A DNA stretch of 58,634 bases from a bacterium. GTDB taxonomy: Bacteria; Margulisbacteria; Marinamargulisbacteria; JAHFDA01. Positions 54,726 through 58,634 of this stretch are shown one piece after another (position 1 is the stretch's first letter; each line of letters starts with the position of its first letter). The notes below the pieces were generated by a model, which saw only the letters and a list, made by a program, of their open reading frames with translations, was not told where the DNA came from and did no database searches. Made by a program: the position numbers and the translations under genes. The stretch spans positions 1 through 58,634 of the forward strand of contig JAHFDA010000011.1 in NCBI GenBank assembly GCA_023249225.1. Reading direction: 5' to 3'.

Positions 54726-55376
54726 TTATAGGTTGGTTTTTGCTGGTATTGCCACGGTTTGCATGGGCGTTTTAACCATCGGGGTAGCGCTGGCAACCGA
54801 GCTGGTGTCAGGCGTAAGGTCCTTGGGTATGACGCTGGAAGCTGTAATGTCTAAACCGCCCAAATCCAGACCACCAAAATCTAAATTCTTTGAAACAGAG
54901 GTATTAACCGCGCTCGACACGCTTACAGAACTTTTGACGCTTCCGGTATTTTGAGTGTTTACAGTCGTGGTGGGCTGGCTGCTGCTGGATTCAGAAGCGC
55001 TGCTGCCAGAAATTTTACCTGCGTCCATGGCGGCCAAAATGTTCATTGCTAGTTTTTCTTCTTTAACGCTGATATCGCCATCGCCATCAAAGTCAAAGCT
55101 GCTGCCCTCAATCAAACCGTCGTCGGCATCGTCAATAAAAGTCTGGATGCTGTCGCTATATTCACTGGTACTGTCTTTGGTATTTGTGTCATCCGGGCTC
55201 TGAAGCATATCGTCGGTAATGACGGCATCATCAAACGCAGCGCTAAAAGAAAGTGAATCGTTGCTTGCTTTAACCAGGTTGCTGCTTTCAGTGGCAATTT
55301 CTTTAGACAGATCGGCGTTGGAAATCTGGCTCACGTTACTGGCGCTTTGAAGTTGATTGTTTTGAATGGATTGCAT
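54726..55376 (-). CDS. EF-hand protein with a Ser/Asn/Gln-rich N-terminus
   Basis: 216 aa from ATG 55376, which is preceded by AAGGAG. No signal peptide. Residues 95-106 (DFDGDGDISVKE) are a canonical 12-residue EF-hand loop with Asp 1, 3 and 5, Gly 6, Ile 8 and Glu 12, so Ca2+ binding is likely. The rest is low-complexity, rich in Ser and Thr, with a LDFGGLDLGGLDI repeat. The N-terminal composition is like that of proteins secreted without Sec, but this is only a hint. Convergent with ymdB, with 2 bp between the stops. Confidence 0.75.
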   Translation of the reverse strand: MQSIQNNQLQSASNVSQISNADLSKEIATESSNLVKASNDSLSFSAAFDDAVITDDMLQSPDDTNTKDSTSEYSDSIQTFIDDADDGLIEGSSFDFDGDGDISVKEEKLAMNILAAMDAGKISGSSASESSSSQPTTTVNTQNTGSVKSSVSVSSAVNTSVSKNLDFGGLDLGGLDITASSVIPKDLTPDTSSVASATPMVKTPMQTVAIPAKTNL

Positions 55377-55559
55377 AATGAAACTCCTTAAATATGGGAT
55401 TGCTTTTAACATCTTTATCGGTATGCAGGTAAGGACAGGATGTATTGATAAAAAACGTTCCATATCGAATTTTAAAAATGTTTAGGCCTCTAAGCATAAG
55501 GGAAAAGATTGGCATGTTTATACACCAAGAACCATGGGTATATGGGCAGGGAGGGATCA

Positions 55560-55928
55560 GTGCTTAACGGAACCAGCGTTATGGAAAAAGAGACCAAAAA
55601 AGCCGAAAAAATAGCCTCTGTGGCCTTAACTGCGGCGGAACCCAAATTCCAAATCAATGCCGATTTCATGTCCTTTAAAAAGTTGTTTAAGGCTCTGGCC
55701 AGCGACGAACGCATCGAAATTTTACGGCTGCTTAAAAAGAACGGCGAAATGTTTGCCCAGGATATTGAAAAACATTTTTACATGGAACAGTCCACGGCCT
55801 CGCATCACCTTAATACCCTGCTAAGAGCGGGGGCGGTGACCAATCGTAAATCGGGACGTTATATCTATTACGCATTGCAAAAAGACTCTATTTCAAAAAT
55901 GCTGGATGAGTTTATAGGCCTGCTCTAA
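55560..55928 (+). CDS. ArsR-family HTH transcriptional regulator
   Basis: 122 aa from GTG 55560, chosen because GGGAGG lies just upstream; the frame is open to a TTG at 55509. Winged HTH: FKALASDERIEILRLLKKNGEMFAQDIEKHF and STASHHLNTLLRAGAVTNRKSGRYIYYAL. No metal-binding cysteine pair (CxC) is present, so metal sensing through that motif is unlikely. It is divergent from the EF-hand gene and upstream of the small-gene cluster, which it may control. Confidence 0.85.
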   Translation: MLNGTSVMEKETKKAEKIASVALTAAEPKFQINADFMSFKKLFKALASDERIEILRLLKKNGEMFAQDIEKHFYMEQSTASHHLNTLLRAGAVTNRKSGRYIYYALQKDSISKMLDEFIGLL

Positions 55929-56020: not shown

Positions 56021-56371
56021 ATGCAAGAACTACATTTACAAGAACGTTTAGAACAATGCCAAGAAGCAGCCATCAAACTATCGTGCTTGGTCGAACGCAT
56101 TCCCAATTTTGAATTTATTGAAGTTCCTAAGCGTGAGCGGTTTGTAAACGTGCTTAAGGAAGTGCTGCCTTATGTTGGGTCAGACCTGCATCAAATCATC
56201 CGTGCCGAAGTGGTGGCAGCATTAGTGGTCGAAGGTTATGAAGGTGCCCAAAATGCCGAGCGCGACCGATTGACAGAGATCATTGTGGCAGCGATAGAAG
56301 CGGATTCTGATAAAAAACTTGAAGCGCTGTGGCTGGCGGAGCGGATGATGCGCCAGATGACAACCCAATAA
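56021..56371 (+). CDS. Small unknown helical protein, first of a three-gene cluster
   Basis: 116 aa. Charged, helical, with no signal peptide (LEQCQEAAIKLSCLVERIPNF, EVVAALVVEGYEGAQNAERD). Preceded by a GGGGAAG ribosome binding site. Its stop lies 3 nt before the next gene. No family recognised. Confidence 0.6.
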   Translation: MQELHLQERLEQCQEAAIKLSCLVERIPNFEFIEVPKRERFVNVLKEVLPYVGSDLHQIIRAEVVAALVVEGYEGAQNAERDRLTEIIVAAIEADSDKKLEALWLAERMMRQMTTQ

Positions 56372-56374
56372 GTC

Positions 56375-56650
56375 ATGGGCCTGCTGGATAACATATCCAA
56401 CGCTATTTCGGGATCCTTACGTGGATTAGAAAACCAGGCCAGTACCAGTTCCAAAGTTTCTGCCTCCAGTGTTGCCAACGAACTGATCAACCTGGGTGAC
56501 CAGTTATCCAAGGCCAGTTCAGACAGCGCAGTTTCGGATACAGCGCAGGGCTTGCAGGCCTTTAAAGGGCAGGAATCTGGCAATACCGTATTGGTGATGA
56601 GCGACTTAAACAGTAAATTTCACGATGGAGAGACCAGTTTTCTGGTCTAA
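56375..56650 (+). CDS. Small unknown protein, second of the cluster
   Basis: 91 aa. Rich in Ser, Ala and Gln; starts GLLDNISNAISGSLRGLENQ and ends with a short polar tail. No signal peptide or membrane segment. Fitting so tightly between its neighbours, it is probably translated with them. Function unknown. Confidence 0.55.
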   Translation: MGLLDNISNAISGSLRGLENQASTSSKVSASSVANELINLGDQLSKASSDSAVSDTAQGLQAFKGQESGNTVLVMSDLNSKFHDGETSFLV

Positions 56651-56656
56651 GCTAAG

Positions 56657-56980
56657 ATGACAGTCCCCTTTGGTCCAGCTTTCAATAGCGAATTCAGCAC
56701 TCAATTTCAGCCTAAAAAAGCGCCGACATCCGCGCCCGGCAGTGGCGAAGCTTTTTTGGCAGCCATGGACCAGGTGGTTAAAGAAGAAGCCAAACGCCGC
56801 ACGCTGGTCGAGACGGCAGACAACGATGCCAATGCCAACCTGTCCAAGAATAAAATTTTGCTCGAAGACGGCAAAAACCTAAAGTTTCCGATGGATGAAG
56901 ACATCATGCAGGAATTGCTCGAAACGGTAAAAGGCAAGATTGGGCAGTTGCGGCAGCTTAAGGAAGAGCTGGGCTTGTGA
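56657..56980 (+). CDS. Small unknown protein, third of the cluster
   Basis: 107 aa. A disordered, Pro/Ser-rich N-terminus (FQPKKAPTSAPGSGE), then two helices (FLAAMDQVVKEEAKRRTLVE; MQELLETVKGKIGQLRQLKE). No signal peptide. Starts 6 nt after the previous stop. The helical-hairpin shape would suit a small structural or chaperone protein. No family recognised. Confidence 0.55.
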   Translation: MTVPFGPAFNSEFSTQFQPKKAPTSAPGSGEAFLAAMDQVVKEEAKRRTLVETADNDANANLSKNKILLEDGKNLKFPMDEDIMQELLETVKGKIGQLRQLKEELGL

Positions 56981-57009: not shown

Positions 57010-57396
57010 ATGACAATGGGTATGGTTTATGCGGATCTGATCTTAAGCAATCCGGCTGAAGGTATTGAAATCAAAGCACATGCACTGGTTGATAGGGGTT
57101 CATTGCTTATGTGTATCCCTGAACATCTTGCCATACAGCTGAAACTGGAGGAGCTTGAAAAACGTGAAGTTGTGCTGGCCAATGGGCACAGGCAACTGTG
57201 TCCTTATGTGGGGCCACTGGAAATCAGGTTTAAAAACCGGCGTTGTTTTGCGGGCGCCCTGGTTTTGGGAAACGAACCTTTGCTGGGCGCGGTTCCCATG
57301 GAAGATATGGATGTTCTTGTGCATCCCGCTTTACGGGCATTGATTGTAAATCCAGAAAGCCCGCATATCTCTGTTGCGCCGGTAAAAAGCACATGA
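57010..57396 (+). CDS. Retropepsin-like aspartic protease fold, degenerate catalytic triad
   Basis: 128 aa. AHALVDRGSLLMCIPEHLAIQLKL matches the clan AA layout (a hydrophobic strand, DTG, then a strand and helix), but the second triad residue is Arg instead of Thr/Ser (DRGS). LGNEPLLGAVPMEDMDVLV resembles the second conserved strand of small bacterial aspartyl proteases. Activity is doubtful. It may be an inactive relative or a sequence change. Confidence 0.65.
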   Translation: MTMGMVYADLILSNPAEGIEIKAHALVDRGSLLMCIPEHLAIQLKLEELEKREVVLANGHRQLCPYVGPLEIRFKNRRCFAGALVLGNEPLLGAVPMEDMDVLVHPALRALIVNPESPHISVAPVKST

Positions 57397-57402
57397 CTTG
57401 TT

Positions 57403-57485
57403 TTAACCCGGATTATTCACGCATATGAAGCGGACTATTACACACGGGAACCCGCTACGAGTAAAGTATGAATAGTGCGGGTTAA
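57403..57485. repeat. AACCCGGATTATTCACG repeat, copy B
   Basis: TTAACCCG and CGGGTTAA are perfect 8-bp ends of an 83-bp element whose left half matches copy A. Its right end contains the stop codon of the adjacent nucleotidyltransferase gene, so the element probably altered that gene's 3' end. Confidence 0.75.
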
Positions 57486-57775
57486 ACCACCCGAATGCCG
57501 TACTTGCGCACCTGATCTAAAAGCGGCGAAACCAGGTCGGTTTTAAATCTTTTCGGAGTGGTCAGGTAATCATCAAAACGCGGGTCAATGGCTTTGGCAA
57601 TACCCGTGATTTGCAGCTGTAGATCCATGGTTTTATTTTCAAAGTCAGGCGACACCACGCAAACGTCTATGTCGCTGTGTTTGCGAGCTTCGTTGCGGGC
57701 ATACGAACCAAACAAATAGATGGCGCTGATGCGGTAATGTCCGGCCAACTTTTGGGCCAGCTTTTTTATTTTCAA
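57482..57775 (-). CDS. Minimal nucleotidyltransferase (MNT-type antitoxin-like)
   Basis: 97 aa from TTG 57775. LFGSYARNEARKHSDIDVCVV holds the GS (23-24) and the catalytic DxD (Asp35, Asp37) of the MNT family. Such proteins usually pair with a HEPN toxin, which they can AMPylate. The upstream DNA holds only a HEPN remnant in the same frame, so the module looks broken. The start is unsure because the frame continues upstream into that remnant. The stop lies in repeat copy B. Confidence 0.75.
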   Translation of the reverse strand: MKIKKLAQKLAGHYRISAIYLFGSYARNEARKHSDIDVCVVSPDFENKTMDLQLQITGIAKAIDPRFDDYLTTPKRFKTDLVSPLLDQVRKYGIRVV

Positions 57776-58582: not shown

Positions 58583-58634
58583 ATGAGTGTAGAATCAGTT
58601 AACGGCGCAGCAGAGACAATGAGCAGGGTAGCCA
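58583..58634 (+). CDS. Start of an unknown gene, cut by the window end
   Basis: ATG 58583 follows an excellent ribosome binding site (AAAAGGAGAAAAAA). The visible part, MSVESVNGAAETMSRVA, shows no signal peptide. It resembles the Ser/Ala-rich starts of the small unknown genes nearby, but is too short to classify. Confidence 0.5.
   Translation, partial: MSVESVNGAAETMSRVA

What the first reader, a model, noticed from the sequence alone, without database searches (positions are those of the whole stretch)
56021..56980. Three tightly packed small genes of unknown family
Proteins of 116, 91 and 107 aa are separated by 3 and 6 nt, sit downstream of an ArsR regulator and near an EF-hand protein, and show no signal peptide or known domain. 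They look like a small operon with a structural or secretion-type function. Type III secretion was considered, but no member could be matched.
Basis: partly seen in the sequence, partly recalled or inferred. Interest (0 to 1): 0.6.

Follow-up and report, generated by a model that had tools for sequence, protein, structure and literature searches.

The report
Small operon related to flagellar-operon gene
Three tiny neighbouring genes in an uncultured Margulisbacteria genome are real and conserved, and the first belongs to an unnamed protein family that relatives keep beside the sigma factor of their flagellum operon, so they are more likely a motility-control module than a secretion system.

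Summary
The three ORFs are real genes. The window is a contig of a flagellated Margulisbacteria genome (Marinamargulisbacteria/UBP8 class). P116 occurs in 19/27 genomes of the class and 6/6 complete ones, nearly always in the order serS–arsR–P116–(P91)–(P107)–lpxC. In the window genome the cassette lies elsewhere but kept its arsR–P116–P91–P107 order. Profiles built without the window find P116 (E=2e-16) and P107 (E=4e-6) as top hits among 640 window ORFs; P91 is assigned by position only. All three are under purifying selection in a congeneric pair. None matches Pfam, NCBIfam, PHROGs, PADLOC or PDB.

P116 is a distant homologue of "P88" (hhalign 95%, score 50 versus at most 18 for shuffles), a small protein that other Margulisbacteria lineages encode as flhA–P88–P68/P90–fliA. 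In the window's class, and in one other family sharing serS–arsR–P116, P88 is missing from that gap. A further paralogue (P120) is coupled to NtrC-type response regulators. Best explanation: a transcription-factor partner protein, most likely in flagellar sigma-28 control, now encoded with an ArsR-type regulator. The genome has one FlhA and one FliQ; the FlhA is flagellar, so no injectisome was found. Function is inferred, not shown.

The parts
55581..55928 (+). ArsR/SmtB-fold regulator (start codon uncertain; the ORF opens at 55509), no cysteines
   Evidence: NF033788 E=5.8e-22 and Pfam HTH_5 E=1.1e-10; homologue beside P116 in 15 of 17 class relatives with readable context and in G031; zero cysteines
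56021..56371 (+). P116: small five-helix protein, homologous to P88 of the flagellar flhA-fliA operon of other Margulisbacteria
   Evidence: class-wide conservation; leave-window-out HMM E=2.3e-16; hhalign to P88 95.1% with shuffle controls; AF2 pLDDT 82.7
56375..56650 (+). P91: middle gene of the cassette; no detectable sequence homologue, hydrophobic C-terminus (FLV) as in the middle genes of relatives
   Evidence: position and C-terminus only; not found by the leave-window-out HMM
56657..56980 (+). P107: low-confidence N-terminal part and a confident C-terminal helix ending LGL; third gene of the cassette
   Evidence: leave-window-out HMM E=3.8e-6; found in 13 class genomes, always beside P116; AF2 helix 80-105

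Best explanation
arsR-P116-P91-P107 is a conserved regulatory cassette of one class of flagellated Margulisbacteria. P116 belongs to an unnamed family of small helical proteins that probably act as partners of transcription factors. In other lineages of the phylum the family member (P88) is encoded in the flagellar operon between flhA and the sigma factor fliA, next to a second small protein (P68/P90) that can be fused to the sigma factor. In the window's class that slot has lost P88 and the family member sits with an ArsR-type regulator. Most likely (inferred) the cassette tunes flagellar late-gene expression: a non-metal ArsR-type repressor sets the level of P116, and P116 with P107 and P91 binds a regulatory target such as FliA or its P90 partner. 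Shown here: coding status, conservation, cassette order, homology P116-P88-P120, and placement. Inferred: binding partner, direction of control, signal.
For: Homology P116-P88 by hhalign, 95.1%, score 50.3, against at most 18.4 for shuffles and at most 12.5 for unrelated small families. P88, P68 and the sigma factor are contiguous in 14 of 15 loci; flhA-P88-P90-sigma factor in G043. Either/or placement: in 11 class genomes and G031 the flhA-sigma gap has P90 or an extended sigma factor but no P88, and P116 is at arsR instead. P68/P90 match on the sigma-factor ORF itself in G061 and G014. P120 is coupled to NtrC-type response regulators. So each subfamily lies with a transcription regulator. 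6 of 6 complete class genomes have P116 and FlhA.
Against: No experiment, no solved relative, no structural match. Almost the whole phylum is flagellated (66 of 74 with FlhA), so co-occurrence with flagella proves little. In the window's class P116 is not next to any flagellar gene. The tree puts P116 opposite P88+P120 together, so it does not single out P88 as the orthologue. G004 and G009 lack the adjacent arsR. Several lineages have the sigma factor without P88 beside it (G032, G038, G072).
Confidence: 0.45

Rival explanations
1. P116/P88 are export chaperones or adaptors of the flagellar type III apparatus (FliT/FlgN-like), with P91 and P107 as their substrates or partners. The poorly structured N-termini would be export signals, and flhA is the neighbour because chaperones dock on FlhA.
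For: P88 lies directly downstream of flhA in nine genomes; P116 is small and all-helical; P107 has a low-confidence N-terminal part and a C-terminal helix.
Against: No sequence or fold match to known flagellar chaperones; P120 is tied to response regulators, not to export genes; P88 stays with the sigma factor even where flhA has moved away (G055, G059).
Confidence: 0.2
2. An ArsR-linked regulatory or stress module with no role in motility: the P116 subfamily kept the ancestral habit of partnering a regulator but now works with the ArsR-type repressor on other genes.
For: arsR is adjacent in 15 of 17 class relatives with readable context and the cassette moved as a unit in the window genome; no flagellar gene is next to it; P120 shows that the family works outside the flagellar operon.
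Against: P88 is absent from the flhA-fliA gap in the lineages that have P116 at arsR, which suggests replacement; G004 and G009 keep P116 without adjacent arsR.
Confidence: 0.3
3. Parts of a non-flagellar type III secretion system or its effectors.
For: Small proteins without signal peptides packed in an operon.
Against: One FlhA and one FliQ in the genome, the FlhA flagellar by its neighbours; no family or fold match.
Confidence: 0.02
4. Chance or spurious ORFs.
For: No database family; the window's P91 has no detectable homologue.
Against: Leave-one-out detection of P116 and P107, purifying selection, synteny.
Confidence: 0.02

Closest known systems
P88 of the Margulisbacteria flagellar operon (flhA-P88-P68/P90-fliA; unnamed, found here)
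   Same: Homologous domain (hhalign 95.1%), similar size, one copy per genome in its own slot, next to a transcription regulator
   Different: Different neighbours: P88 is with the sigma factor, P116 with ArsR and two genes (P91, P107) not seen beside P88; about 15-25% identity
FlgM anti-sigma-28 factor (Pfam PF04316)
   Same: Small protein tied by gene context to flagellar sigma-28 (for P88); P107 resembles FlgM only in having a poorly structured N-terminal part and a C-terminal helix
   Different: No PF04316 match in any of the three or in the window genome; genuine FlgM domains occur elsewhere in the phylum
FlgV (Borrelia BB0268 family, PMC11607428)
   Same: Small conserved gene next to the flagellar sigma factor
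   Different: FlgV has two transmembrane helices and a polar tail; P116/P88 are soluble helical proteins. In G031, G028, G034 and G043 a small membrane protein in the flhF-flhG-X slot is the FlgV-like one
ArsR-family repressors without a metal site, such as SdpR
   Same: HTH_5 fold and a small ArsR protein heading an operon
   Different: Below the SdpR cut-off (68 versus 100 bits); different downstream genes; signal unknown

Membership tests
P116/P88/P120 family (unnamed) | Profile similarity above controls | tested here: met
   hhalign 95.1% with P88, 83% with P120, shuffle and reversal controls far lower; the P88 HMM finds several P116s at E 2e-7 to 9e-5
P116/P88/P120 family (unnamed) | Encoded beside a transcription regulator | tested here: met
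   ArsR for P116, sigma factor for P88, NtrC-type regulators for P120
FlgM (anti-sigma-28) | PF04316 domain | tested here: not met
   No match for any of the three proteins and none in the window genome
FlgM (anti-sigma-28) | Binds and inhibits sigma-28 and is exported through the flagellum | not testable with these tools
   needs binding and export assays
FlgV | Two transmembrane helices, encoded inside the flagellar operon next to sigma-28 | tested here: not met
   No hydrophobic segments by inspection; soluble helical model; the cassette is outside the flagellar operon
Non-flagellar type III secretion system | Injectisome-type export apparatus (second FHIPEP and FliQ-type proteins) | tested here: not met
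   One FlhA, one FliQ; FlhA in a flagellar operon
ArsR/SmtB metalloregulator | HTH_5 winged-helix domain | tested here: met
ArsR/SmtB metalloregulator | Cysteine-containing metal site | tested here: not met
   No cysteine in the window's ArsR; a His/Asp/Glu-only site was not excluded

The most novel reading that the evidence does not exclude
The cassette is a new kind of sigma-28 switch: an ArsR-type repressor controls P116 and P107, which together replace FlgM as the brake (or act as a brake release) on FliA. In support, 12 of 13 P107-bearing genomes have no recognisable FlgM while the f4 genomes that lack P107 and P91 have one, and P116's relatives lie in the fliA operon.
Probability: 0.13. 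Interest if true: 0.7.

Novelty: new variant of a known kind. Interest (0 to 1): 0.42.

Why it matters
It exposes a small-protein family absent from Pfam, NCBIfam and PDB. Members are tied to three kinds of transcription regulators (ArsR, flagellar sigma factor, NtrC-type response regulators) across a phylum near the Cyanobacteria. It also shows that in many Margulisbacteria the slot filled by flhF–flhG–flgV in other flagellar operons is filled by P88 and P68/P90, with P68/P90 sometimes fused to the sigma factor. This gives a testable route to how these uncultured bacteria control flagella, apparently without a recognisable FlgM or FlhF in most lineages.

Tried and rejected
Pfam, NCBIfam, PHROGs, PADLOC and PDB-sequence searches of single proteins and alignments gave only chance-level hits for the trio and its relatives. 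The weak PDB hit to MJ1213 (E=0.022) disappeared with the larger alignment. Foldseek of the P116 model against PDB and BFVD gave nothing (best E 2.4 and 1.3). P107 or P91 as paralogues of P90 was rejected by hhalign, and P90 versus P68 was not detectably related. P116 as FlgM was rejected. A read-through fusion of the trio as a folding trick was dropped because MAFFT misplaced the P107 rows on P116. A sigma-70 promoter scan of the region found nothing and no convincing operator palindrome was seen. The lpxC dN/dS control used the wrong strand and is discarded.

Full report
OBSERVATION. P116 has a Shine-Dalgarno-like AAGGGGGAAG upstream. The ORF upstream is an ArsR/SmtB-fold regulator without a single cysteine, so it is not a classical cysteine-based metal sensor. 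No known family matches the three proteins.

REAL GENES. A search of relatives found P116 in 16 of 56 genomes with one sequence. With a profile it is in 19 of 27 genomes of the class, and in 6 of 6 that are at least 90% complete and at most 5% contaminated. The gene order in relatives is serS–arsR–P116–small 'NPDFFK' protein–P107–convergent lpxC. Some genomes lack the middle gene and some (families f4 and f10) lack both partners. arsR is next to P116 in 15 of 17 class relatives with readable context; G004 and G009 are the exceptions. In the window the cassette lies downstream of rny–ymdB instead, yet arsR–P116–P91–P107 kept their order, which marks them as a functional unit. HMMs built without the window find P116 (E=2.3e-16) and P107 (E=3.8e-6) as top hits among 640 window ORFs; the window's P91 is not found and is assigned by position only. 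In the congeneric pair G004/G009, dN and dS are 0.045 and 0.64 (P116), 0.15 and 0.84 (P91 position), 0.054 and 1.73 (P107), which is purifying selection on all three.

ORGANISM. Named homologue records are Candidatus Margulisiibacteriota, Marinamargulisbacteria and UBP8 metagenome bins. The window's own genome (G000, 2.83 Mb, 97% complete) is unnamed but in the same class.

NO INJECTISOME. G000 has one FlhA, in an operon flhB–flhA–P90–sigma factor, and one FliQ, between fliP-like and fliR-like ORFs by inspection. 66 of 74 genomes of the phylum have FlhA. No separate type III secretion apparatus was found to which the trio could belong.

THE LINK TO THE FLAGELLAR OPERON. Outside the class, the P116 profile gave weak hits (E 1e-5 to 7e-4) in five genomes. 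Two of the five lie in flhB–flhA–[88-133 aa]–[68-73 aa]–sigma factor (G071, G058), and two more (G055, G059) have the same small protein–small protein–sigma factor unit without flhA upstream. The fifth, G031, again lies at serS–arsR. The 88-aa protein (P88) as a query found 15 such loci and, weakly, P116 of G016 and G011 in return. It also found a third group of about 110-120 aa (P120). Profile-profile comparison gives P116–P88 95.1% probability, score 50.3 over 83 columns, when P88s from families f19 and f23 are included, and 90.6% without them. P116–P120 gives 83% and P88–P120 98.7%. Controls: column-shuffled alignments at most 18.4 for the P88 set (at most 20.3 for any set), reversed at most 13.1, unrelated small-protein families at most 12.5. 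Homology is therefore well above background although identity is low.

WHERE THE FAMILY SITS. P88, P68 and the sigma factor are contiguous and often overlapping in 14 of 15 loci, the last being cut by a contig end. In f23 (G043) the order is flhA–P88–P90–sigma factor; in f19 (G028) P88 is followed by a sigma factor with an N-terminal extension. In the window's class, the flhA–sigma gap was read in 11 genomes: it holds P90, or an extended sigma factor, and never P88. G031 is the same. P88 is thus missing from the flagellar slot in the lineages where P116 sits beside arsR. That either/or pattern is the main reason to think P116 took over or carries on P88's job. The tree puts P116 (with G031) on one side of a split and P88+P120 on the other (98/99), which is compatible with this but does not prove it. 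The sigma-factor ORFs carry Sigma70_r2 and/or r4 domains; calling them FliA rests on position. P68 or P90 matches lie on the sigma ORF itself in G061 and G014, and two more sigma ORFs (G028, G003) have unassigned N-terminal extensions of similar length. P120 lies between an NtrC-type regulator and a second receiver–sigma-54-domain protein in several genomes, overlapping or nearly overlapping the latter.

STRUCTURE. AF2 gives P116 five helices, mean pLDDT 82.7, with residues 41-110 mostly above 90, and no match in PDB or BFVD. P107 is mostly low-confidence with a confident C-terminal helix 80-105 ending LGL.

MECHANISM. The family member travels with a transcription regulator: ArsR (P116), the flagellar sigma factor (P88), an NtrC-type regulator (P120). 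The simplest reading is a partner protein that modulates a regulator. Given P88's place, flagellar late-gene control is the most likely pathway (0.45); an unrelated ArsR-linked role (0.3) and a flagellar export chaperone (0.2) remain. A FlgM domain is found in only 4 of 27 class genomes: the three f4 genomes, in which P107 was not found, and weakly G001, which has P107. This hints that P107 could replace FlgM, but it rests on about one evolutionary event, and FlgM is short and easily missed, so I give it 0.13. FlhF above its cut-off is present only in f19, f21 and f23. In G028, G034, G043 and G031 a second flagellar operon with flhA–flhF–flhG–small membrane protein was read, matching the flgV slot described in PMC11607428.

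NOVELTY. Family libraries and solved structures hold no member that could be detected. Paper searches for Margulisbacteria or Saganbacteria with flagella turned up no title or abstract about these genes; the FlgV paper (PMC11607428), the only hit read for flagella, describes a different, membrane protein. It is a new protein family in a known kind of setting (small accessory genes of flagellar operons), so 'new variant of a known kind'.

Noticed in passing
window 57010-57396 (+): A retropepsin-like clan AA aspartic protease (TIGR03698, 59.3 bits over the 57.35 cut-off) starts 29 nt after P107; it may extend the operon in this genome but had no match beside the cassette in the fetched relatives.
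   Followed up: partly
window 57482-57775 (-): A small MNT-type nucleotidyltransferase-like protein; PADLOC models PDC-S09 match at E=4e-12. Possible toxin-antitoxin or defence half without an identified partner.
   Followed up: no
window 54726-55463 (-): A 245-aa low-complexity protein with one EF-hand loop by eye and no signal peptide noted by eye; no match in the fetched relatives.
   Followed up: partly
window 58584-58634 (+): A gene starting MSVESVNGAAETMSRVA runs off the contig end after an AAAGGAGAAA ribosome site; not identified.
   Followed up: no
L081, L107, L127, L110 (fliA region of G061, G014, G028, G003): The small P68/P90 protein is fused to the flagellar sigma factor in G061 and G014, and the sigma factors of G028 and G003 carry unassigned N-terminal extensions of similar length, suggesting a direct sigma-factor partner.
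   Followed up: partly
L122-L127, L135 (G031, G043, G034, G028): These Margulisbacteria carry two flagellar FlhA operons, one with flhF-flhG-FlgV-like and one with P88/P90-sigma factor.
   Followed up: partly
L086-L100 (P120 loci): P120 lies between or beside NtrC-type response regulators, and the downstream one has a weak sigma-54 domain and no HTH_8 hit.
   Followed up: partly
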